Shown: piece by piece, positions 1,558-37,917 of the stretch
Position numbering within the stretch: position 1 is the stretch's first letter
How the letters are laid out: the number at the start of each line of letters is the position of its first letter
From: a virus
Strand: one strand, 5' to 3'
DNA: 39,701 nt
IMG/VR virus record: IMGVR_UViG_3300023240_000044
Span: 1-39,701 of that record
Notes under the pieces: generated by a model
Told to the model about the DNA's origin: nothing
Databases searched by the model: none
What the model saw: only the letters and a program-made list of their open reading frames with translations
Made by a program: the position numbers and the translations under genes

Positions 1558-2265
1558 CTATCTCTCCTCAACAGCCTCCCATTTAAAGTCTTTAATTATG
1601 AATCGTGAGTTGGGTGGTGTTTGGAGATCTACTTTATTAGTAACACCATTGTTTATAACAACATTCATATTAGTTTTATTTATTTGGTCCATTATTTTCT
1701 TATCATCCATTTTTCTAACTAATCTACCGTCATAGTAGAATTTAAGTGATTCTCGTGTCCAGTCTAATGAATATTTAATGAAGTTTTTAGTAGGATCTTT
1801 AAATCCAAAATAATGTGTTTTACTACCAATCGTTTTATTATCATAATTTCTCCTATAATGTACATTTGTTTGTATATTCCAGAACCCTAAGGGTTTTCCT
1901 AATCTAAGCTTAAAAAAGTTAGAGTTATTATTTGAATATCCCTCAAGTATATCTATTTCAGGAGGCCATGAATCAAAAGACCACATCCAAAATGCAGGCC
2001 AAAGATTTTTACCATAAGGCAATTTTGCTTCAATTTCAAATCTGCCAAACTTGAAACTTTCAGTACAAGATACTAATCCAACTCCGATTGTTGAACTTAT
2101 TCCAAAATCATCAAAATATTTTACCTTCTTTCTTGTTAATAAGTTTAATCTATCATCATCATCTATGAATGATGATTCGGGGTCATACCACCAGTGAGGT
2201 TTATCAATATGTATTTGCCCCCACCTTTCTTGCTGTAACCACTTATACCCCTTCCACTCTATCAT
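1558..2265 (-). CDS. Glycoside hydrolase family 16-like protein
   Basis: A 235-aa protein with the hallmark GH16 signature EIDILE (residues 103-108), where the two Glu are nucleophile and acid/base in known laminarinases, agarases and carrageenases. Supporting GH16 features are FGRFEIEAKLPYGKNLWPAFW (split here: FGRFEIEAKL, residues 73-82, then WPAFWMW, 89-95) and the late SLDWTRESLKFYYDGRLV. It is close to the size of a bare catalytic domain and has no signal peptide. It probably cuts beta-linked polysaccharide, perhaps from outside the cell as part of a virion or after lysis; substrate cannot be told. It overlaps the next upstream gene by 4 nt (ATGA). Confidence 0.82.
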   Translation of the reverse strand: MIEWKGYKWLQQERWGQIHIDKPHWWYDPESSFIDDDDRLNLLTRKKVKYFDDFGISSTIGVGLVSCTESFKFGRFEIEAKLPYGKNLWPAFWMWSFDSWPPEIDILEGYSNNNSNFFKLRLGKPLGFWNIQTNVHYRRNYDNKTIGSKTHYFGFKDPTKNFIKYSLDWTRESLKFYYDGRLVRKMDDKKIMDQINKTNMNVVINNGVTNKVDLQTPPNSRFIIKDFKWEAVEER

Positions 2266-3004: not shown

Positions 3005-3328
3005 TTAATTTATTGAAGTAATACTACCCGTTTTAATAACAGCACCAATAAATCCTTCACATTCCATATAAAATCTATAGATATAAATAGTATCAAATGG
3101 TAATCCAACCCAGGCAACATCGGGGTCATTTGATTGGAATACTAGAACTCCAAACCTATCATATATTTCTAAATTATAATATTTAACTTTAAGTATATCG
3201 TTAAATATGGGTATAAAAACATCATTAATTCCATCCCCATTCGGGGAAAATGCATCAGGGATGTAAATATTTTGAGATATGATATTCATACTGAATATTA
3301 ATGTTATAATTGTAAGTAATTTTTTCAT
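3005..3328 (-). CDS. Secreted protein consisting of a CHU_C / type IX secretion C-terminal domain
   Basis: Residues 1-19 (MKKLLTIITLIFSMNIISQ) are a clear signal peptide. The rest matches the gliding-motility-associated C-terminal domain (CHU_C, T9SS type B sorting signal): YIPDAFSPNGDGINDVFIP (residues 22-40), then YNLEIYDRFGVLVFQS, and a C-terminal strand ending IKTGSITSIN. In Bacteroidota this domain normally caps a large secreted protein and directs it through the type IX secretion system. Here it stands alone at 107 aa with no cargo domain. It may anchor or decoy the host T9SS or decorate the cell surface during infection; that is inference. The family call is strong. Confidence 0.85.
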   Translation of the reverse strand: MKKLLTIITLIFSMNIISQNIYIPDAFSPNGDGINDVFIPIFNDILKVKYYNLEIYDRFGVLVFQSNDPDVAWVGLPFDTIYIYRFYMECEGFIGAVIKTGSITSIN

Positions 3329-12935: not shown

Positions 12936-13832
12936 TTAAATTACTCTTTTAAATATTGCTTGTTCTTTCATCTTAGCTTCAATAACAATATCAGGCTCTA
13001 AACCATATGTTTGAATTTTTTCATAAATTAAATCCGAATGAGCTTGGGGGCGAATTGATTCATCTAAAAATTCTTTACGTCTGCTTTCTGAGTAATGGCA
13101 ACATTGGGGTATACCTTTAGGCCAGGTGGTTGCAGCCATTTTTAATGCTTGTTCCTCACTCATACCACTATTATTAAATTTATGGTGGAAATAATCAAAT
13201 GTGATTGGGATACCTATGGATTTATAAATCCCTTCATATAAATCCTTAACAGAATATTCATTTGGGCTATCATCATTCTCGATTACTAGGCGTTTTCTAG
13301 TGTCAAGGCGTAATAGACTAAAATTCTCCACAAAACGCACCAACGTCGCATCTTTATCGCCGTAAGCACCACCAACATGAATATTGATTTTATTGTAATT
13401 TGAAGGTTCAAACCCAAGCATATTCATTTGTTCACTATGGAAATCGAGTTCTCGAACAGTCTTCTCAACAACTTTTAGGTTTGGTGAAGCAAGACAATTA
13501 TATGGACCTGGATGCATTGTGAGTCGTTGGCCTGCCTTAGTGGCAATTGCTCCTATTTCAAGCATTAATTTACAAATCTCATCATAATCTTTTAATGATG
13601 AAAATTCATACTCATCCTGCCATGGAAATATTTGGGATGATAAACGGAATAATTTTATTCCATGTTCATTATTCCACTCAACAATAGTTTTTAAATCTTT
13701 GACATTTAATAATGCTAAATCCGAAACATACTCTAAGCCTTTAGATTTAAATGTTTTCTTACGCATTGTGCGGTTTGTGAAAATTCCCTTTTCACTCATA
13801 ACTGTGCATAAGCACGCATATCCTAAATTCAT
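12936..13832 (-). CDS. uvsE: UV damage endonuclease
   Basis: A 298-aa protein of normal length for the UvsE/UVDE family. It starts MNLGYACLCTVM and shows family segments in order: FRLSSQIFPW, TMHPGPYNCLASPN, KINIHVGGAYGDK, RLVIENDD, ITFDYFHHKFN and CCHYSESRR, which carry the His, Glu and Asp residues that bind the metal cluster in the TIM barrel. Known members nick DNA 5' of UV photoproducts and some other lesions, starting repair. In a phage it would repair the genome after sunlight exposure and fits a surface-water lifestyle (inference). A leader AAATAAAGGTTATG precedes it. Confidence 0.93.
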   Translation of the reverse strand: MNLGYACLCTVMSEKGIFTNRTMRKKTFKSKGLEYVSDLALLNVKDLKTIVEWNNEHGIKLFRLSSQIFPWQDEYEFSSLKDYDEICKLMLEIGAIATKAGQRLTMHPGPYNCLASPNLKVVEKTVRELDFHSEQMNMLGFEPSNYNKINIHVGGAYGDKDATLVRFVENFSLLRLDTRKRLVIENDDSPNEYSVKDLYEGIYKSIGIPITFDYFHHKFNNSGMSEEQALKMAATTWPKGIPQCCHYSESRRKEFLDESIRPQAHSDLIYEKIQTYGLEPDIVIEAKMKEQAIFKRVI

Positions 13833-27027: not shown

Positions 27028-27246
27028 TTATATAACTTCTTTTACAATTAAGTATTTTTCTATGGCAGATAACCTATCGTCTGCTTCTACTAACATTAAA
27101 AGTGCTTCTTCAGCATTTTTATAAAAATCTGTTGTTGAATGGTCACCTATTCCTGCTGGGTGGTTTTCTAACAAATCTAGAGTTAATATTGCTTTTGCTT
27201 TATCAGCTAATGCTGATGTTTTTAACATATCTGTTAAACTACTCAT
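27028..27246 (-). CDS. Hypothetical protein, 72 aa
   Basis: Starts MSSLTDMLKTSALADKAKAI and is helical and acidic (NAEEALLMLVEADDRLSA). Overlaps the stop of the gp62-like gene by 4 nt. No family is recognised; position suggests a replication accessory. Confidence 0.62.
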   Translation of the reverse strand: MSSLTDMLKTSALADKAKAILTLDLLENHPAGIGDHSTTDFYKNAEEALLMLVEADDRLSAIEKYLIVKEVI

Positions 27247-27704
27247 AATTTTGCCTTTTTGATTATTTTTTTAATTTCTTTTTCTTCAACCCCCATTCCT
27301 TCTAAAATGTATTTAACATTTTTACCAAGAATGTTTATGTAACTATTAGCTTCACTACTAGAACATTCATAATACTTAGAAACATATCCTTCTAACTCTT
27401 GATATGTGTTTTTATTTTCATTTTTGATATACTTGGACCATGTTTTTTTTCTAGGAATCAATTCCTGGTAGATAGTATAAATTTGTTTCTTATTTTGGGG
27501 GCTAATTTTCTGGACATAGTTTACTATATCAATGTAGTCCCTATTCATACTTAACCACTTATGGATCATATAAGAATTCCACTGCTCCCATGAAGATTCT
27601 GAGATGGTGTTTGGGTGAGACTTTTTTAGAGTTATCTCACCCAACCACTCAAAAATATTGGAAATTTCTCTCTTAACCATCAATAATATGGTCTTCGTAA
27701 TCAC
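27243..27704 (-). CDS. Clamp-loader small subunit, T4 gp62-like
   Basis: The protein is likely to start at ATG 27680 (MVKREISNIFEWLGEI), since the longer form overlaps the upstream gene by 32 nt. Core pattern: WNSYMIHKWLSMN...DIVNYVQ, then YQELIPRKKTWSKYIK and LEGYVSKYYECSSSEANSYI, the order of conserved pieces in gp62-type subunits (including the 'PRKK/W-K' segment). In T4, gp62 with gp44 loads the gp45 sliding clamp. It lies downstream of the clamp-loader ATPase, as in T4-like phages. Divergent, so not named. Confidence 0.72.
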   Translation of the reverse strand: MITKTILLMVKREISNIFEWLGEITLKKSHPNTISESSWEQWNSYMIHKWLSMNRDYIDIVNYVQKISPQNKKQIYTIYQELIPRKKTWSKYIKNENKNTYQELEGYVSKYYECSSSEANSYINILGKNVKYILEGMGVEEKEIKKIIKKAKL

Positions 27705-28024: not shown

Positions 28025-28750
28025 TTAACCTTTCAATTCAATAAGACGTGCCACTAAACCTAAACAATTTATTTCTTTGTCAATACGAAAATTACTTTGG
28101 TACGAATATTCATTAAGGTAAATTGCAACCATTCCCTCATTTCCCGGGGCAAATTTAGTTGAGTTATCATAAAGGTAACGATAAAGTTCTTCAAAGTCTT
28201 GAGTATTACTGTTCGCGATAATTTGTCTAATTTCTTTCCAATTTGGTTTAACATCTGATAATTTTTTTACTACTTGATCCATATAATTAGATGATACAAG
28301 TATAGATTTGTCTATAATAAGCTTGTTATCTTGAGTTGACAGTTGTATTGTATTAAGACATCTACGTAAATCAGGATAAAATTGGTTTACAATTATTACA
28401 ATATCCTCCAATTCATATTCTGTATTTTCCTCATCCATAATCCAAGCAATATGTTTTGCAACACCCTTTCTAGAGGGTGGTAATATCTTAAGTACTTGAC
28501 ATCGGGATTGTAGAGGATCTATAATACGTTCAACATAATTACAAGTCATTATAAACCTAGTAGTACGAGAAAATGTTTCAATAACATTACGTAATGAAGC
28601 CTGTGCTTGTATGGTAAGAAAATCACAATTGTGAGTTAAAATATCTCCTTTACTTCCTATGTAAAAATTAGAGTTATTTTCTACAGACAAATCATAAACA
28701 TGATGTTTACTTCCTGTTCTTTTTATTGATCTTATTTTTAATTTCTCCAT
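28025..28750 (-). CDS. Clamp-loader ATPase C-half with intein C-domain at its N-terminus
   Basis: Residues 1-41 are an intein C-half (MEKLKIRSIKRTGSKHHVYD ... GDILTHN, block F and the terminal HN of block G) and Cys42 is the first extein residue. From residue 42 the extein continues CDFLTIQAQASLRNVIETF, TRFIMTCNYVERIIDPLQSR and later, with sensor-1 Asn (TCN) and the arginine-finger SRC motif of RFC/gp44-type AAA+ loaders. Joined to the N-half (30404..29775) by trans-splicing, DE|CDFLT restores the Walker B. The extein is 200 aa; the spliced protein would have 306 aa, near T4 gp44's 319. Its start overlaps the endonuclease gene by 44 nt. Confidence 0.9.
   Translation of the reverse strand: MEKLKIRSIKRTGSKHHVYDLSVENNSNFYIGSKGDILTHNCDFLTIQAQASLRNVIETFSRTTRFIMTCNYVERIIDPLQSRCQVLKILPPSRKGVAKHIAWIMDEENTEYELEDIVIIVNQFYPDLRRCLNTIQLSTQDNKLIIDKSILVSSNYMDQVVKKLSDVKPNWKEIRQIIANSNTQDFEELYRYLYDNSTKFAPGNEGMVAIYLNEYSYQSNFRIDKEINCLGLVARLIELKG
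28628..28750 (-). mobile_element. Split intein, C-terminal half (41 aa)
   Basis: Covers residues 1-41 of the downstream clamp-loader piece, ending in THN with Cys as +1. It has the typical Int-C block F (VYDLSVENNSNFYIGSKGDI) and block G. Int-C halves of natural split inteins are usually 35-45 aa, matching this. Confidence 0.9.
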
Positions 28751-29723
28751 TTATTCCTTTATATGCTTTGATGTAAAATTCGTTGTTTCTGCTATCTTTG
28801 TTATCATTCTCATCTATGTAATGTACTAAATTGTCTTCGTTTATCCAAATAAATTTATACCCTTCTTCAAAACACCATTTTATGGCTCCATCCATTTTAT
28901 TTTGTTGTTTAATAAAATTTCTCCGTGGTTTTAATTCATATATTATTTTATTTTCTTCGTCTATAAAATCAGGAATGTAAACCCCACCCTTACCATTGTT
29001 TTTTAAGTATTTTATTCTAAGGGTTTCATATTTTAGAGAGGGGTTTGACAGGAAAAATATAACTTCCCAACTACTTCTAAAAATATATTCTCTATCAAAT
29101 AAATAGCATGTGTTTTTTTTATAATGGTTATAATTTTTCTGGGGGTCAAAAGAACCCTCTAGTATATTTTTAATTTGAGAAATTGAAGATTTAAGGTTTA
29201 TTGCTTCTCTTTCTTTATCTGTTAAATTTGACTTCCACCTTTTAGTATTTACCTTATTAAATTCACCAACATTTTTACAATATTCCTCCCCCTCCGATGT
29301 AGCTAAAAATAATTTTCTTTTATTAGAACGTTTGATATTAGCCTCGGTACTATGACTGCCATTACCATCCAACCATTTTTTTTCTATGTAGTGTTTTTCA
29401 CACCAATTGGGTAATTGACTTACACTACGTTTTAATGGTAGGACAAAAGATTTTTCTATTTCACATCCACAATATAGGCATTTGTTACTATCTAGGTGAA
29501 GTTTTCTAAAGTAATAACTAAATATATATTTAGAATTAACCCCTAGTTTTCTATTAACCACAGACAAAAACCCCCTTTGGGTGTTGTATAAATTGGAGGA
29601 AAAGGGTGCATAATACTCGTTTATTATCAACCCTTTAACCCAACTTATTATCTCCTCTTCAGTATAATCTATATTATCACTCCAATAACTCCCAATGTTT
29701 TTCGTATTTTTAGGCTTACCCAT
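28707..29723 (-). CDS. Free-standing homing endonuclease inside the split clamp-loader gene
   Basis: A 338-aa protein between the two intein halves. Residues 82-111 hold a probable zinc site: CLYC (82, 85), C108 and H111. The C-terminal catalytic-looking part has SSWE (Glu220), YIPDFI (Asp252) and YELKP (Glu263, Lys265), an E...PDF...E-x-K order like Vsr-like/PD-(D/E)XK nucleases, with KWCFEEGYKFIWI after it. Dassa and co-workers reported free-standing endonucleases of a Vsr-like family between split-intein halves in environmental phage genes; this fits that arrangement. It should drive spread of the insertion by cutting uninterrupted clamp-loader genes (inference). It overlaps the intein C-half gene by 44 nt. 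Confidence 0.82.
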   Translation of the reverse strand: MGKPKNTKNIGSYWSDNIDYTEEEIISWVKGLIINEYYAPFSSNLYNTQRGFLSVVNRKLGVNSKYIFSYYFRKLHLDSNKCLYCGCEIEKSFVLPLKRSVSQLPNWCEKHYIEKKWLDGNGSHSTEANIKRSNKRKLFLATSEGEEYCKNVGEFNKVNTKRWKSNLTDKEREAINLKSSISQIKNILEGSFDPQKNYNHYKKNTCYLFDREYIFRSSWEVIFFLSNPSLKYETLRIKYLKNNGKGGVYIPDFIDEENKIIYELKPRRNFIKQQNKMDGAIKWCFEEGYKFIWINEDNLVHYIDENDNKDSRNNEFYIKAYKGINGEIKNKINKKNRK

Positions 29724-29774
29724 AATTATTTATTTTATTATAAATATATAGATTGGGCTCAAGAATACAAGGAA

Positions 29775-30086
29775 TCAACCTTTGGGGTTAAATATCTCCA
29801 TATAATCCTCTAACTCGGTTGTTTTGACAACCTTGGGATTACCCTCCTCATCTTCAACATACCATTTATGATCTGGGGTGCATATGATATTCTCTCCATT
29901 TTCAAATTCAATTTCATATGTTTCTTGTTCTCCTTTATCCCACAAATAAAAAGGCTTCCATTCTACTCTAGATGTTTTAATATTATATGACTTAACTAAG
30001 TCATTAACTTCATCTAATTCTTTAATGGGTATTAGATTTACTTCTCCTTTTCTAAGTACAGCTATTAGGGTGTTTTCATCTAAACA
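29775..30086 (-). mobile_element. Split intein, N-terminal half (103 aa)
   Basis: From Cys107 to the stop: block A CLDENTLIAVL and block B ICTPDHKWYV are clear, as is WDKGEQETYEIEF before it. The length is in the range of Int-N pieces of gp41- and NrdJ-type split inteins. Confidence 0.9.
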
Positions 30087-30404
30087 TTCATCTAAAATGA
30101 CCACTTTTAATGGTTTAAATGACATTGTACTCGCAAATCCCATTACTTTATCTCTTATAGTTTCTATACCTCTTTCATCACTCGCATTAATCATTAAATG
30201 GTCGCAATCTAAATTTTTAACTAATAACTTAGCTAAGGTGGATTTTCCACAACCTGCAGGACCATAAAATAACATATTAACAATATCATTTTGGTCTATG
30301 AAATTTTGTAATGTTTTTTTAATGTGTTCATTCCCAACAAACTTTTCTAAAACTTGGGGTCTATATTTCTCATTTAAGAGTGAATTATCTTCTTTATTTA
30401 TCAT
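29775..30404 (-). CDS. Clamp-loader ATPase N-half with intein N-domain at its C-terminus
   Basis: Residues 1-106 are the N-half of an RFC/gp44-like AAA+ clamp loader: LNEKYRPQVLEKFVG (the usual RFC box), Walker A FYGPAGCGKST (residues 47-56), INASDERGI, and KPLKVVILDE where the Walker B ends. Cys107 begins the intein: CLDENTLIAVL (block A) and later GENIICTPDHKWYV (block B, TxxH). The frame ends 103 residues later. It must splice with the partner at 28025..28750 to be functional. It sits upstream of the endonuclease with a 51-nt gap. Confidence 0.92.
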   Translation of the reverse strand: MINKEDNSLLNEKYRPQVLEKFVGNEHIKKTLQNFIDQNDIVNMLFYGPAGCGKSTLAKLLVKNLDCDHLMINASDERGIETIRDKVMGFASTMSFKPLKVVILDECLDENTLIAVLRKGEVNLIPIKELDEVNDLVKSYNIKTSRVEWKPFYLWDKGEQETYEIEFENGENIICTPDHKWYVEDEEGNPKVVKTTELEDYMEIFNPKG

Positions 30405-30766: not shown

Positions 30767-32383
30767 TTAATCCATTACTTCTTGTGATTCTTTAGGTGGG
30801 TTATCTACTACAACACATTCCGTGAGTAAAATAGTACCAGCTACTGAAGCTGCATTCTCTAATGCTGTTATTGTTACCTTAGATGGGTCTAAAATTCCTG
30901 CCACTTTCATATTAACAATTTTCTCTGTTTTAAGGTTATAACCTTTCCAAACATCCCTTGATTTTATATCTATTAATTGATGTTTACCAATCATTTGGGC
31001 GTCTGTTGACGTATAACCTGCGTTTAAAAGTATTTGCTCGAATGGTTTACCACAGGCCTCATATACAATTTTTGCCCCCACATTATTAAGATTAATATGT
31101 TCACGAGCGTATAATAAAGCAGCTCCCCCACCTGGGATTATACCTGCTTCTAGTGCTGCTTTAGTAGCATGTAAGGCATCATCAACCCTATCTTTTTTCT
31201 CTCCCATTTCAACTTCTGTGTGACCTCCCACATGAATAATAGAAACACCACCTACCATTTTTGCTAGGCGATTTTGTAGTTGTTCAGTTACAAAAGGTGT
31301 ATCTGATTTGTTAATTTGGGTTTGTAATTCACTAACTCTTAGGTTAATTGATTCCTCATCACCTTTACCATCAACTATAGTTGTTTGTTCTTTAGTGATT
31401 GTAACGGTTCTAGCTTCTCCAAACCAATCATAAGAAAATTTATCTAATTTCATACCTTTATCCTTATCAAATACAGTACCACCTGTTAAAGTAGCTATAT
31501 CTTCAAGAATTAATTTCTTGCGTTCTCCAAAATCGGGGGCTTTTACAGCAGCTACTTTAAGGATTCCTCTTGCTTTATTAACAATTAAAGTTGCAAGTGC
31601 TTCTCCATCTATATCATCGGAAATGATTAGTAAAGATCTATTAGTACTAGAAACACTCTCTAGAATAGGTAATAATTCTTTTACTTGAGTAAATTTATGA
31701 TCTGCAACTAAAATAAAAGGATTATCTAATGTGCAACTCATACTATTGTTATCTGTAACAAAGAAATGGGATTTATATCCTCTATCAAATTGCATCCCCT
31801 CTACAGTTTCAAGATAAGTTTCACCTGACTTACTTTCTTCAATATGAACTACACCATCTCTACCTACTTTTTCAATAGCAGTAGCAATTAATTTACCCAC
31901 TTCAACATCATTATTAGCTGAGATGGTTGCAATTTGTTTGAGTTGGTCTTCATTAGTAATTTCTTGTGAAATGCATTCTCTGATAAAAGCAATTACTTCT
32001 TTCACAGCAATATCAATATTGCGTTTAATCTCTACAGCATTCTCACCATTATTGAGATGTTTTAACCCAGCCTTAACTAACTCACGAGCCAGTAAGGTTG
32101 AGGTGGTCGTCCCATCTCCTGCCTTTTCGGCGGTTTGAAGTGCTGCTTCTCTTACCATTTGTACTCCTAAATTTTGGGTGAAATCTTCAACCTCAATTTG
32201 TTTTGCAACTGTTACACCGTCCTTAGTATGGAGGGGTTTTCGGGGTTGGTTTGGTTTTGTTACATCAATTAATACATTCCTCCCATTTGGCCCTAAAGTA
32301 CATACAACAGCATCCGCTAATATATTAATACCTTTCATTAGTTCTGCTCTTGCTTCGGTTCCGAATCTTACTTCTTTTTTCAT
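30767..32383 (-). CDS. groEL: Chaperonin GroEL-like (Hsp60)
   Basis: A 538-aa protein of normal size. Sequence features: VCTLGPNGRNVLID, KDGVTVAKQIEVED, KAGDGTTTSTLLA (ATP site), NDVEVGKLIATAIEKVG, the GIIPGGGAALLYA segment near residue 405 and ending NPPKESQEVMD. The usual C-terminal GGM repeat is absent. GroEL folds proteins inside a double ring with GroES. Phage-borne GroEL is known in some large phages and may serve capsid or enzyme folding. Coupled to groES, which ends 2 nt before its start. Confidence 0.93.
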   Translation of the reverse strand: MKKEVRFGTEARAELMKGINILADAVVCTLGPNGRNVLIDVTKPNQPRKPLHTKDGVTVAKQIEVEDFTQNLGVQMVREAALQTAEKAGDGTTTSTLLARELVKAGLKHLNNGENAVEIKRNIDIAVKEVIAFIRECISQEITNEDQLKQIATISANNDVEVGKLIATAIEKVGRDGVVHIEESKSGETYLETVEGMQFDRGYKSHFFVTDNNSMSCTLDNPFILVADHKFTQVKELLPILESVSSTNRSLLIISDDIDGEALATLIVNKARGILKVAAVKAPDFGERKKLILEDIATLTGGTVFDKDKGMKLDKFSYDWFGEARTVTITKEQTTIVDGKGDEESINLRVSELQTQINKSDTPFVTEQLQNRLAKMVGGVSIIHVGGHTEVEMGEKKDRVDDALHATKAALEAGIIPGGGAALLYAREHINLNNVGAKIVYEACGKPFEQILLNAGYTSTDAQMIGKHQLIDIKSRDVWKGYNLKTEKIVNMKVAGILDPSKVTITALENAASVAGTILLTECVVVDNPPKESQEVMD

Positions 32384-32385
32384 AT

Positions 32386-32706
32386 TTATACTTTTAATTT
32401 ATTAACTTTTACTAAGGCTAGTAATTGATTTTCTGGTCCAACCCAATACTCTTCACCATCATATGGTAATTTTGTGAAACCTTGAGTTGGTAATACAACT
32501 ACATCTCCAACTTTACTGATTGTTGGGATGAATTTTCCCATCAAAGTACTCTGACCGGGGCCAACTGATATAATTTCACCCATTTTGTTTTTTTCATTCC
32601 CCATGTCGGGGACAATAATTGAACCATGTTGGGTATCTTCAGCTTCTAGGGGCTTAATAATAACGGCATTAAATAATGCTTCTAATTCTTTAAATTCTTC
32701 TTTCAT
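32386..32706 (-). CDS. groES: Co-chaperonin GroES-like
   Basis: A 106-aa protein with AVIIKPLEAEDTQHGSIIVPDM, an unusual mobile-loop variant, and the beta-barrel motif GEIISVGPGQ, then GDVVVLPTQGFTKLPYDGEEYWV and QLLALVKV, the order and length of GroES. The mobile loop (near residues 22-36) is more acidic than in host GroES. It stands directly upstream of groEL. A few T4-like phages carry only a GroES-like gp31; here both are present. Confidence 0.85.
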   Translation of the reverse strand: MKEEFKELEALFNAVIIKPLEAEDTQHGSIIVPDMGNEKNKMGEIISVGPGQSTLMGKFIPTISKVGDVVVLPTQGFTKLPYDGEEYWVGPENQLLALVKVNKLKV

Positions 32707-33882: not shown

Positions 33883-34677
33883 TTATAGGTTAAAAAACAT
33901 TTGTTGAAAAGGATTGAGTGAGAGATTCCAGTTTAAATCTGAGTAAAGACCTTCTATTTTATTTAATAATATAGATTCAAATATCTTTTTCCTATCAGCG
34001 TATTGTTCTATAAACTTTTCAATTTTTGGTGGGAAATCATAATCTAAAAAAGCAATTGCATCAATTTGGTAGGGGTTTGGTTTTAGGTAAATCCATTTAA
34101 TTTTATCACCCTGTGTTATTGTGCTGTGTTTTTTATCTAACTCCCAGAATTTAAGTAAATCATTATATCTAATAACTGCTCTAACTGCAGCAGGTGCTCC
34201 TTTAGCTACTACTGTAAACATTTCTCCAGCTCTAGCTTTCCGTTCAGTATATTTATTTAAGGTTTTAACTGATGTTGGGTTACCTAATTCTGTAAGAGAT
34301 ATAGAACCATCAAGTATTTGAGTTTTAAATGATTTTACTCTACTATCAATTTCAGATTGAGGGGTACCTTTTAAAATATCTACTAATATCTTATGGAAAA
34401 ACTTACCTAATACTGGTGGGAAATTTGCTTTTTTAAATTCAAGACCTTTCACATCAAGTGTCTCTTTTACAATACCTTCCTGCTTAGTGATCCATTGAGC
34501 ATATCTTCGAGTTGCTCTAAAATAAGCTGCACGAATAACACATTCGGTTTTCATTTCTAATCTATGATGTGGAACATTGAAACAGTTTTTGGCTAAATCA
34601 CCATATGAGTCTGTAATAATATCTTGATATTTGAGTGCAATTACCTCTAACTTATCATCCTTCTCTCCACTAGACAT
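33883..34677 (-). CDS. Family B DNA polymerase, C-terminal part (thumb/palm)
   Basis: A 264-aa frame that continues the palm and thumb of a T4 gp43-type polymerase: KDDKLEVIALKYQDIITDSY, NCFNVPHHRLEMKTECVIRA, YFRATRRYAQWI, KGLEFKKANFPPVLGKF, and LSLNPFQQMFFNL at the end, like the clamp-binding C-terminus of gp43. The open frame extends upstream to 34740 as ADSIYIHAEPLLRYLNPSFD, so the second Asp of motif C lies just ahead of this ATG; no ATG, GTG or TTG precedes it. As a free protein from 34677 it would lack that catalytic Asp. Confidence 0.85.
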   Translation of the reverse strand: MSSGEKDDKLEVIALKYQDIITDSYGDLAKNCFNVPHHRLEMKTECVIRAAYFRATRRYAQWITKQEGIVKETLDVKGLEFKKANFPPVLGKFFHKILVDILKGTPQSEIDSRVKSFKTQILDGSISLTELGNPTSVKTLNKYTERKARAGEMFTVVAKGAPAAVRAVIRYNDLLKFWELDKKHSTITQGDKIKWIYLKPNPYQIDAIAFLDYDFPPKIEKFIEQYADRKKIFESILLNKIEGLYSDLNWNLSLNPFQQMFFNL

Positions 34678-34740
34678 TTCATCGAATGAGGGATTTAGGT
34701 ATCTAAGTAAAGGTTCGGCGTGTATGTAGATTGAATCTGC

Positions 34741-34818
34741 TTACGTATCTGAGTACGCGACGTAATTTACGTCAGTACCCAGACAGATATATTCAGGTGT
34801 ATCTTGTAAAAATTTCAT
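34741..34818 (-). pseudogene. Short polymerase segment between the two parts
   Basis: A 25-aa frame: MKFLQDTPEYICLGTDVNYV then AYSDT and TAA. YSDT is the first part of motif C (YSDT|DS); after TAA-GCA the same frame continues with DSIYI. Excising the 6 nt GTAAGC would restore ACA-GAT-TCA (T-D-S). It starts after an A-rich 55-nt gap following the stop of the N-part. Confidence 0.6.
34749..34782 (-). repeat. Hairpin just upstream of the interrupted motif C
   Basis: On the minus strand GACGTAA-A-TTACGTC is a perfect 7-bp inverted repeat, flanked by a further CTGGGTAC / GTACTCAG match with one mismatch. It ends 5 nt before the stop codon. Confidence 0.6.
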
Positions 34819-34873
34819 TTCTTGAGTTGTTTCTTTATAGTTATATTATTGTATTACTTTTATTTTTGTTTTT

Positions 34874-36556
34874 TTAAAGTTCTATTTCACCCCTCATAAC
34901 CTTGTTTATATGAAGATTGGCTGTTAATGCACTCTCACAAATAATCCGCTGACCACTTAAAGTTGTTGCTTCAGCTAATAATATACCTGAAAATCTGAAG
35001 CTTGAAACAGCCAAGGCGCCATAAAGTGAATTTAGTAGAATTTTTTGAGTCCATTGCCTCATATAAAACCTAGCACCTAATTCTTTATTGCCAGATTGAT
35101 ATGCTTCCTTCATTTTACTCTTATATAAAACACGTTCACCAAACCATTTTTTTAGGATGGTCGATAATACTGATTCCTTATCAGTTCTAAAAAATACACC
35201 ATTTGCTGACACTGATAATTCATTTTCAGTAATCATCCTAATCAGTTTAGCTACTGATACCTTAGTACGTTTACGTTTGGCATTTTCAACAATTAGCTCT
35301 TCCTCGGGATCTCGAGTTTTTAAATCATTTAACCCTAAACGATTATTTCTATCATCAGCATCTATGATTCTACCAACCATTGTTTCTTTACCAATATTGA
35401 TAGTCATTATAATTGAAGGGTATAGTGAGGTTAAATCCTCATCAAATACATAATTATATATACCTGCTTTTGGGCAAAATAAATACCCACCTGCATAGTT
35501 CTTTTTAGATAAAGGATTACGTTCTTTAGATGGTGGTATAATACCTTCACTTAATAGATAAGCTGAGATGGCACCATCCTGTGTTTTGGTATTAGCATAA
35601 ACCTCACTATAATTGTGTTTACCCTTATGTGCAAGATTTTTAACTAAAGATAAATATTCTAGTTTTTCATCTAACACCTTAAGTATTTCAACATCTCTAA
35701 AGTTATATTGAATGAATTTTAAAGGGTCTTTTTCAAATAAGTCATCTAAATTTCCGTCATATTCAATTTTATTTAACCCCGCGTATTTTTCACCAATAAC
35801 ATCTAACTTAAAGGATGGTTCATCTGCCCAACTAAACTTCTTATGTAAACGCATATAATCAAGTGATTCAACTCCTGCTATTTGTATGAATTGATCTTTA
35901 TACCAAGGGGTTTCTCTAACATACCCAATTGGGGATAAATAACGAGCTATATCTTGACCTAAAACATTACACATTCTGTAGTAAAGATAAGGAACATCAA
36001 AATAATCCCCATTCCAAGAAACAATAATATCAGGATCTATTTCCCTAAATTTTTCAATGAATTTCATCAATAATTCATTTTCAGTACGACATGGGATTAT
36101 TTCCCTATTTTTTGTTTTTGTATGTTTGAGATTATCCTTGGCATCTAATATTAAGATACCCCACAAATCAACTTGCTTATCATACCATGCTATTGATGTA
36201 ACCTTTTTAGGTGCTGATTTGATGTATTCTTCAGTAAGAGCACCACCCATTTCAATTTCAATATCAAAAAATATTTCTCTTTGAGTGGTTGAAGGGGTAT
36301 CATCAATACCATATTTTTCAACTAGGAATTTTTGATGTGCAGGCATATCATGGAAGTGGATTTTGCTGTCTTCGGGGTTCCAGTTTGAGGTTTTGCGTAG
36401 TGATTCACCATTTAACCCTATATGTGTTGCTTGAGAATCACCACACTCTAAATAAGCTTGACTTGTCCATTCTATTTTTTGGTAACCCTCATCATCCCAT
36501 AGATGGATTAGGTAATTATTACCCTTTAACCTTCTTGCAAATACCTTTTTATACAT
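34874..36556 (-). CDS. Family B DNA polymerase, N-terminal part
   Basis: A 560-aa protein of T4 gp43 type. Exonuclease: FFDIEIEMGG (ExoI Asp98, Glu100), VSWNGDYFDVPYL (ExoII, residues 179-191) and YNFRDVEIL (ExoIII, Asp288). Polymerase: DLTSLYPSIIMT (motif A, Asp374) and QKILLNSLYGAL (motif B, Lys505, Asn509). It ends at HINKVMRGEIEL before motif C, as the 43A/43B split genes of some Aeromonas phages do. The rest of the enzyme is in the next two frames. Exonuclease and motif A/B residues are intact. Confidence 0.92.
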   Translation of the reverse strand: MYKKVFARRLKGNNYLIHLWDDEGYQKIEWTSQAYLECGDSQATHIGLNGESLRKTSNWNPEDSKIHFHDMPAHQKFLVEKYGIDDTPSTTQREIFFDIEIEMGGALTEEYIKSAPKKVTSIAWYDKQVDLWGILILDAKDNLKHTKTKNREIIPCRTENELLMKFIEKFREIDPDIIVSWNGDYFDVPYLYYRMCNVLGQDIARYLSPIGYVRETPWYKDQFIQIAGVESLDYMRLHKKFSWADEPSFKLDVIGEKYAGLNKIEYDGNLDDLFEKDPLKFIQYNFRDVEILKVLDEKLEYLSLVKNLAHKGKHNYSEVYANTKTQDGAISAYLLSEGIIPPSKERNPLSKKNYAGGYLFCPKAGIYNYVFDEDLTSLYPSIIMTINIGKETMVGRIIDADDRNNRLGLNDLKTRDPEEELIVENAKRKRTKVSVAKLIRMITENELSVSANGVFFRTDKESVLSTILKKWFGERVLYKSKMKEAYQSGNKELGARFYMRQWTQKILLNSLYGALAVSSFRFSGILLAEATTLSGQRIICESALTANLHINKVMRGEIEL

Positions 36557-37266: not shown

Positions 37267-37917
37267 TTAAAATACCCCCAAATTTGAACTAATGGCATTC
37301 ATGAATTCTTCCCTTACTAAGTTATTGGGTTCCATAAATTTCCCAGAAAAACTATTTGTTGTCATGATAGATTCAGGATGTTTAATTCCTCTATTTCCAC
37401 AGCATGTATGTTTAGAACTAATTGATACTGCAATAGATTCACATTTTAAAACATTATTCAAATAATCATGAATTTGTTGAGTTAAAGATTCTTGCATATT
37501 GGGTCTTCTAGCAAACCAATCCACCACTCTATTAAGTTTAGATAAACCAATAACAGTTTCCTCGGGGATATAAGCAACTGAACATTTTCCATTAAATGCT
37601 AAATTATGGTGAGCACAAAGACTATTAACTCTGATTCCTGTTTGAATTACTACTCCACTAAATTTTTCTTCATTAGGGAAGGTTGTAATAGAAGGACCTT
37701 CAATAACAGAACCCATTGTAATATCTTTCAACCAACTTTTAGCCACCCTATTTGGGGTTTCAACAGTTTGTCTATCAGCCATATAATCCCAACCCCCAGC
37801 ATTTAGAAATTTACCATAATAGAAGGCCATTTCTTTTTGCATTTTTTCTAATTCTTTAGGAGTACGAACAATGTTACCATTTGCCTTTTTAAGTAATTCA
37901 ATTTTATTTTTTACCAT
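37267..37917 (-). CDS. folE: GTP cyclohydrolase I
   Basis: A 216-aa protein of usual length. LCAHHNLAFNGKCSVAYIPE holds the zinc ligands Cys101 and His104, then GLSKLNRVVDWFARRPNMQE and, at 162-178, IAVSISSKHTCCGNRGI with the third ligand Cys. Such enzymes make dihydroneopterin triphosphate for folate; in phages the same step feeds 7-deazaguanine DNA modification (via QueD, QueE, QueC), but no other genes of that pathway are in this window. It could serve either. A motif N promoter precedes it. Confidence 0.92.
   Translation of the reverse strand: MVKNKIELLKKANGNIVRTPKELEKMQKEMAFYYGKFLNAGGWDYMADRQTVETPNRVAKSWLKDITMGSVIEGPSITTFPNEEKFSGVVIQTGIRVNSLCAHHNLAFNGKCSVAYIPEETVIGLSKLNRVVDWFARRPNMQESLTQQIHDYLNNVLKCESIAVSISSKHTCCGNRGIKHPESIMTTNSFSGKFMEPNNLVREEFMNAISSNLGVF

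What the first reader, a model, noticed from the sequence alone, without database searches (positions are those of the whole stretch)
28025..30404. Clamp-loader gene broken by a split intein with a homing endonuclease between the halves
Seen directly: the first gene ends with an intein N-half starting at Cys right after KPLKVVILDE; the second starts with an intein C-half ending THN, then CDFLTIQAQ. Joining gives DE|CDFLT, the Walker B of RFC/gp44-like loaders, and a 306-aa protein. Between them, overlapping the second gene by 44 nt, is a 338-aa nuclease with a zinc-like CxxC and an E...PDF...E-x-K core. Known: Dassa and co-workers described 'fractured genes' of this layout, with a Vsr-like endonuclease, in environmental phage genes. 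Inference: the insertion sits in the catalytic Walker B, where uninterrupted copies are well conserved, and the endonuclease cuts those. A gp44 example with this endonuclease in a Bacteroidota phage appears at least uncommon.
Basis: partly seen in the sequence, partly recalled or inferred. Interest (0 to 1): 0.85.

Follow-up and report, generated by a model that had tools for sequence, protein, structure and literature searches.

The report
Clamp-loader gene fractured by mobile split intein
A phage's essential replication gene has been cut in two by a selfish element, and its two protein halves probably rejoin by protein splicing; many related phages show the same element arriving, losing its DNA-cutting gene, or fusing back into one piece.

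Summary
On the minus strand, a T4 gp44-like clamp-loader gene is broken at Walker B (ILDE|CD) into N-extein+IntN (29775-30404) and IntC+C-extein (28025-28750). A 338-aa nuclease gene (28707-29723) lies between and overlaps IntC by 44 nt. The joined extein is 306 aa. It is a "fractured gene" in Dassa's sense, but not with a Vsr-like enzyme: the nuclease is TnsA-like PD-(D/E)XK. Nor is it rare: 102 fetched loci (48 distinct inteins) carry this intein at the same site and 101 are empty. Homing is strongly indicated. L004 (cis intein) and L071 (empty) differ by 23 substitutions, all within 183 nt of the site, then only one indel in about 3.7 kb. In L028/L030 the inteins are nearly identical (dS about 0.05) in exteins with dS above 1.2. 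The nuclease family also sits in fractured UvsW, a SNF2-type helicase and TerL, at Walker B (DE|C) in nearly all. A promoter-like TATATTTATAATAA precedes the nuclease. Splicing and cutting were not tested.

The parts
30087..30404 (-). N-extein of gp44-like clamp loader (106 aa; Walker A GPAGCGKS; ends VILDE, first half of Walker B)
   Evidence: phrog_168 positions 5-109
29778..30086 (-). IntN, 103 aa, Cys1, B-block TPDH; stop codon at 29775-29777
   Evidence: (TIGR01445 44.6 bits, cut-off 24.5)
29735..29748 (-). Promoter-like TATATTTATAATAA, 11 nt before the nuclease ATG
   Evidence: core TA[TC]TTATA in 13/17 homologous spacers vs 0.75 expected; same motif 8-17 nt before ATGs elsewhere in a related phage record
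28707..29723 (-). Putative homing endonuclease, 338 aa: CxxC region, helical middle, C-terminal TnsA-like PD-(D/E)XK domain (E220, E233, D252, E263-x-K265 invariant)
28707..28750 (-). 44-nt overlap of nuclease 3' end and IntC start
   Evidence: overlap of 1-50 nt in nearly all homologous loci
28628..28750 (-). IntC, 41 aa, F block VYDLSV, G block ILTHN
   Evidence: (TIGR01443 32.5 bits, cut-off 15.6)
28028..28627 (-). C-extein of clamp loader (200 aa, starts CDFLT = second half of Walker B with the +1 Cys)
   Evidence: phrog_168 positions 107-306
27243..27704 (-). Neighbour: gp62-like clamp loader A subunit (weak match)
   Evidence: PF16790 E 0.0018

Best explanation
This is a mobile split intein in a fractured gene. 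Shown by sequence: a canonical class 1 intein (HINT fold) is split at the usual endonuclease position, its two parts are on separate genes, and a TnsA-like PD-(D/E)XK nuclease gene lies between. Inferred: the two precursors meet, the intein halves fold together, excise and ligate ...ILDE to CDFLT..., restoring a 306-aa clamp-loader subunit with a DECD Walker B (DEAD in most uninterrupted copies). The unspliced halves should be ATPase-dead. Inferred from comparative data: the nuclease, probably transcribed from its own promoter, cuts intein-free clamp-loader genes of co-infecting phages near Walker B; repair copies the intein, the nuclease gene and the +1 Cys codon, with about 100-200 nt of flank. 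The nuclease gene later decays, but its 3' end overlaps the IntC start, so what remains is first a nuclease-less split intein and sometimes, after a precise deletion, a fused cis intein.
For: Splicing residues are conserved in 48/48 distinct inteins, with purifying selection (IntN dN/dS about 0.07-0.08 for WIN/L002, L026/L033 and WIN/L160). The natural cis homologue L004 (intein about 80% identical to the window's) models as a HINT intein (pLDDT 95.4), matching NpuDnaE, NrdJ-1 and gp41-1; the best sequence match in the PDB is the split intein NrdJ-1. Nuclease: invariant RSSWE..E..DF..ExKP, dN/dS 0.15-0.28, TnsA fold. Mobility: in L004 vs L071, 23 substitutions all lie within 183 nt of the intein, with only one 1-nt indel in about 3.7 kb beyond, and the +1 codon is changed from GCA to TGT. 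L028/L030 inteins have dS about 0.05 while exteins have dS 1.27 or saturated. The window's extein groups with empty phages but its intein with L002, L004 and L005. Decay series: L005, L024, L028, L037 and L039 keep nuclease 3' tails. L004, L020 and L034 are fused at or near the IntC start codon, as 3 independent lineages.
Against: No protein or DNA experiment. All loci are assembled metagenome contigs and no reads could be checked. L004, the best case of recent arrival, has no nuclease gene now, so the enzyme that moved it is not seen; L002 resembles the donor (93% in the intein) but is not the donor itself. The promoter motif was found in the same spacers in which it was counted. The direction split-to-cis is inferred from nesting on an unrooted tree and from the relic start codon.
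Confidence: 0.88

Rival explanations
1. The split inteins are fixed passengers that no longer move: they splice, but the nuclease is a relic and the distribution reflects vertical descent.
For: Five lineages have lost the nuclease and some copies carry frameshifts or stops (L025, L178, L240, L241). Most intein-bearing exteins group apart from most empty ones.
Against: L004/L071 conversion tract; L028/L030 and L006/L010 inteins much closer than their exteins; window extein nested among empty phages; nuclease under purifying selection.
Confidence: 0.07
2. The two clamp-loader halves work unspliced as a two-chain subunit, as split NrdA of phage Aeh1 or the split gene 43 of Aeromonas phages do.
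For: Such split proteins are documented (PMC2988022), and this phage group has a two-gene polymerase without an intein.
Against: The break lies inside Walker B between the catalytic DE and the following D; intein residues are conserved in 48/48; cis-fused versions at the same site must splice to make a clamp loader.
Confidence: 0.03
3. The locus is a decaying pseudogene or an assembly artefact.
For: The same contig has an in-frame stop in the polymerase catalytic motif.
Against: The same three-gene order with the same kind of overlap recurs in many independent contigs; selection on all parts; no group I intron or other known RNA family there.
Confidence: 0.02

Closest known systems
Fractured genes with split inteins (Dassa et al. 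2009, NAR 37:2560; full text not held, content from memory; the layout is described second-hand in PMC7891396, and the paper is cited in PMC6892783 and PMC7090010)
   Same: Conserved enzyme gene broken by a split intein with a free-standing endonuclease gene between, mainly in phages; control elements near the endonuclease gene were reported there (memory)
   Different: The nuclease here is TnsA-like with an E..D..ExK core, not Vsr-like; host gene gp44; decay and refusion intermediates and a conversion tract are visible. I could not check whether gp44 is among the eight enzyme types of that paper
AceL NrdHF split intein (PMC7891396)
   Same: Fractured gene in a phage-like metagenome contig; 98+48 aa split at the usual site
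   Different: Class 3 intein with a GIY-YIG nuclease in nrdHF; here class 1 (C1) with a PD-(D/E)XK nuclease in a clamp loader
Split TerL of Krischvirus coliphages and Shewanella phage Thanatos-2 (L154-L156, annotated only as terminase/packaging enzyme)
   Same: Same nuclease family, intein at Walker B of TerL (IDE|CAF)
   Different: IntN is very short and is fused in frame to the nuclease in one ORF; IntC is long (resembles, from memory, the AceL-TerL type)
TnsA of Tn7 (1t0f, 1f1z)
   Same: Best fold match of the nuclease and best Pfam family (14/21 members)
   Different: TnsA works with TnsB/C in transposition; no transposase genes seen here; sequence identity about 13%
I-Bth0305I / Vsr-like homing endonucleases
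   Same: PD-(D/E)XK-superfamily core; family used as homing endonucleases in fractured genes (memory)
   Different: Much weaker fold match (probability 0.28-0.35 against 0.99 for TnsA); catalytic ExK retained here
MIJ3 PolB split intein with HNH nuclease (PMC6892783)
   Same: Jumbo-phage replication gene in three-ORF layout
   Different: HNH nuclease, other host gene, single case

Membership tests
Class 1 intein | Cys/Ser1, B-block TxxH, C-terminal Asn, Cys/Ser/Thr +1 | tested here: met
   48/48 distinct inteins have C1, TxxH, N and C+1; penultimate His in 38/48 including the window
Class 1 intein | HINT fold | tested here: met
   L004 cis homologue, pLDDT 95.4, 64 PDB matches at E<=0.001, the 50 listed being inteins or intein-like domains
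Class 1 intein | Autocatalytic splicing | not testable with these tools
   needs expression
Fractured gene (Dassa layout) | Host gene in two ORFs, each ending or starting in an intein half, with an endonuclease ORF between | tested here: met
Vsr-like homing endonuclease family of fractured genes (about half of Dassa's loci, from memory) | Nuclease of the Vsr-like type | tested here: not met
   TnsA fold probability 0.99 vs Vsr 0.35 and I-Bth0305I 0.28; Pfam TnsA-like N in 14/21 members
Homing endonuclease | Intact nuclease active site under selection | tested here: met
   invariant E220, E233, D252, E263, K265; dN/dS 0.15-0.28
Homing endonuclease | Spread of the element with co-conversion of flanks into intein-free alleles | tested here: met
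   L004/L071; in that pair the nuclease gene itself is absent
Homing endonuclease | Cuts the empty site in vitro | not testable with these tools
   needs enzyme assay
T4 gp44 / RFC small clamp loader | AAA+ with Walker A, Walker B and a phage clamp-loader profile over the whole length | tested here: met
   phrog_168 over both halves; gp62-like gene downstream (PF16790 E 0.0018)

The most novel reading that the evidence does not exclude
One TnsA-like nuclease lineage has specialised in carrying split inteins into the Walker B motif (DE|C) of several unrelated phage P-loop NTPases (clamp loader, UvsW helicase, SNF2-type helicase, TerL).
Probability: 0.5. Interest if true: 0.75.

Novelty: new variant of a known kind. 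Interest (0 to 1): 0.62.

Why it matters
How naturally split inteins arise, and whether they can be undone, has rested on few cases (from memory of the field). Here one insertion site shows every stage in many phages: empty, fractured with nuclease, fractured with only the nuclease's tail, fused again, and a recently arrived copy with its conversion tract. That makes the origin and reversal of gene fracture testable by phylogeny and by simple crosses. It also supplies about 48 distinct split or cis inteins of one family, including near-identical split/cis pairs (L002/L004, L011/L020), which would suit protein-ligation work, and a nuclease family whose members lie next to essential phage ATPase genes.

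Tried and rejected
Single-sequence scan of viral contigs with the nuclease found nothing (patterns too specific); the family alignment A1 did. A PDB sequence search with the nuclease gave only noise (taurocyamine kinase, I-CreI at E about 0.09), so the fold comparison was used. The Vsr-like assignment was tested and rejected. Group I intron or another known RNA element: no Rfam family at gathering score in the window, no tRNA. A search of the window's own record found one copy of the nuclease only. An apparent archaeal occurrence (Nitrosarchaeum and Methanobrevibacter MAG contigs) was rejected as cellular: L233 has a phage-type clamp loader followed by a gp62-like gene, and L234/L235 carry a phage UvsW-type helicase (read by eye from the translations); both are probably viral contigs in MAG bins. 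Scar test: no empty copy has Cys at +1 (94 A, 5 F, 2 S), so no sign of precise loss. WIN vs L074 gave no clear conversion tract. L202 looked like a UvsW case but no intein junction could be defined. Dassa 2009 is not in the library. The joined window intein was not folded, since only unchanged sequences may be submitted; the natural cis homologue L004 was used instead.

Full report
**Observation.** The three ORFs are present exactly as described, all on the minus strand. N ORF 29775-30404 gives 106 aa of clamp loader ending VILDE, then 103 aa of IntN beginning CLDENTLI. The C ORF 28025-28750 begins with 41 aa of IntC ending ILTHN and continues CDFLTIQAQ. The 338-aa nuclease ORF 28707-29723 lies between and overlaps the C ORF by 44 nt. 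Both halves match NCBI's intein models above cut-off, and the two extein parts match adjoining parts of the phage clamp-loader family phrog_168. Joined, they make 306 aa.

**The intein.** Related contigs were fetched with each piece and sorted by script. Of 203 clamp-loader loci, 101 are uninterrupted, 89 have the split intein with a nuclease, 3 have a broken nuclease, 5 have a split intein without nuclease and 5 have a fused cis intein. Several contigs appear twice; there are 48 distinct intein sequences. All lie at one residue, just after the DE of Walker B. Cys1, TxxH, terminal Asn and +1 Cys occur in 48/48. In empty copies the +1 residue is Ala (94), Phe (5) or Ser (2), never Cys, so the element appears to bring its own +1 Cys codon. 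The cis homologue L004 folds as a HINT intein (pLDDT 95.4) close to NpuDnaE, NrdJ-1 and gp41-1. The best PDB match by sequence is the split intein NrdJ-1.

**The nuclease.** An alignment of 21 members has the invariant core RSSWE220...E233...D252F...E263-x-K265-P. Fourteen of 21 match Pfam's TnsA-like family at E <= 0.01 (the window protein falls 0.1 bit short of its cut-off). The AlphaFold model (pLDDT 80.7) has TnsA as best fold match (1t0f, probability 0.99), against 0.28 for I-Bth0305I and 0.35 for Vsr. It is therefore not a Vsr-like enzyme. The Foldseek E-values are modest (best 0.02), so the family placement rests on fold, Pfam and motif together. dN/dS of 0.15-0.28 indicates selection for function.

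**Movement.** L004 and L071 are almost the same phage: apart from one 1-nt indel they are identical from 183 nt after the site onward over about 3.7 kb. L071 has no intein and L004 has the cis intein. Twelve substitutions fall within 175 nt to the left and 11 within 183 nt to the right, including GCA to TGT at +1. Spread evenly over the 4.15 kb compared, such a cluster would have a chance of the order of 1e-24 (simple arithmetic; the interval was taken from the data). This is the expected picture of a conversion tract around a recent insertion. L028 and L030 share inteins with dS about 0.05 in clamp loaders with dS 1.27 or saturated. On the extein tree the window sits among empty relatives (84% identical to L074), while its intein groups with L002, L004 and L005.

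**Decay and refusion.** The nuclease's 3' end overlaps IntC by 1-50 nt in nearly all loci. Accordingly L005, L024, L028, L037 and L039 have lost the nuclease but keep its last codons in front of or across IntC. In L004, L020 and L034 the two halves are fused at or near the IntC start codon. These are three separate lineages nested among split ones. L002 and L004 are 93-94% identical in DNA across the two intein halves and their near flanks. Direction split-to-cis is the natural reading, though the tree is unrooted.

**Own promoter.** Between the N stop and the nuclease start, 13 of 17 homologous spacers carry TA[TC]TTATA, against 0.75 expected from shuffles (the pattern was derived from these spacers). 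In the related 161-kb record of L160 the full motif TATATTTATAATAA (one mismatch allowed) occurs 11 times against 3 for the reversed control. At 7 of 9 other sites examined it lies 8-17 nt before the ATG of an open frame. In the window it ends 11 nt before the nuclease ATG; the window as a whole shows little or no excess of it.

**Other host genes.** A family scan places the nuclease in fractured UvsW-type helicase (e.g. L072, L214-L216, L220, L222, L224, L225, L234), SNF2-type helicase (L199/L200) and TerL (L229, L231, L154-L156). These host genes were named by eye from the translations and, for TerL, from the records' annotation. In every case where the junction could be read, the intein follows Walker B DE and the next residue is Cys or, in the C-extein, starts with Cys. 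In L202 no junction could be defined. In the TerL of Krischvirus and Thanatos-2 the short IntN is fused in frame to the nuclease. In L203, L205, L206, L217 and L228 the nuclease is found with an intact clamp-loader gene that has Phe at +1; in the three inspected it stands just upstream and overlaps the start. These nucleases form one clade.

**Host.** The contig encodes a T9SS type B/CHU_C domain protein, which favours Bacteroidota. The nearest isolate by polymerase and clamp loader is Microcystis phage Mel-JY01 at 36-40%, so the host is not settled.

**Literature.** Searches of the held library found no paper on a split intein in a phage clamp loader or on TnsA-like homing endonucleases in phages, judged by titles and abstracts. 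The library lacks Dassa 2009, so prior notice of gp44 there cannot be excluded. AceL NrdHF (PMC7891396) and MIJ3 PolB (PMC6892783) show that the layout is known with other nucleases.

**Verdict.** A real, probably active mobile split intein in a known layout, with a different nuclease family and an unusually complete set of intermediates. Splicing and cleavage remain to be shown.

Noticed in passing
window 33883-36556 (-), especially about 34740-34760: The B-family DNA polymerase is two genes, as in many relatives (L251-L260; second gene starts MKHLEDTPWWICD), without an intein. In this window a 6-nt insertion puts an in-frame TAA into the catalytic motif YSDT*ADS; assembly error, inactivation or readthrough not decided.
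   Followed up: partly
L203, L205, L206, L217, L228: Same nuclease family standing free beside an intact, intein-less clamp-loader gene with DEFD in Walker B; one clade on the nuclease tree.
   Followed up: partly
L154:1580-4727, L155:1130-4241, L156:467-3567: TerL of Krischvirus coliphages and Shewanella phage Thanatos-2 is a fractured gene with short IntN fused in frame to the nuclease and a long IntC; annotated only as terminase or packaging enzyme.
   Followed up: partly
L157 (LR756500.1, 462-kb uncultured phage): Fractured clamp loader with a strongly diverged intein and a nuclease with extra cysteine-rich segments.
   Followed up: partly
L233, L234, L235: Probable phage contigs binned into Nitrosarchaeum and Methanobrevibacter MAGs, carrying the fractured clamp loader or UvsW.
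   Followed up: partly
L160 record (161 kb): TATATTTATAATAA lies 8-17 nt before several ATGs, suggesting a phage promoter class with very short leaders.
   Followed up: partly
window 3005-3328 (-), 1558-2265 (-), 12936-13832 (-), 30767-32706 (-), 37267-37917 (-): T9SS type B/CHU_C domain protein, GH16 hydrolase, UvdE endonuclease, GroEL and a short GroES-like gene, GTP cyclohydrolase I on the same phage contig.
   Followed up: no
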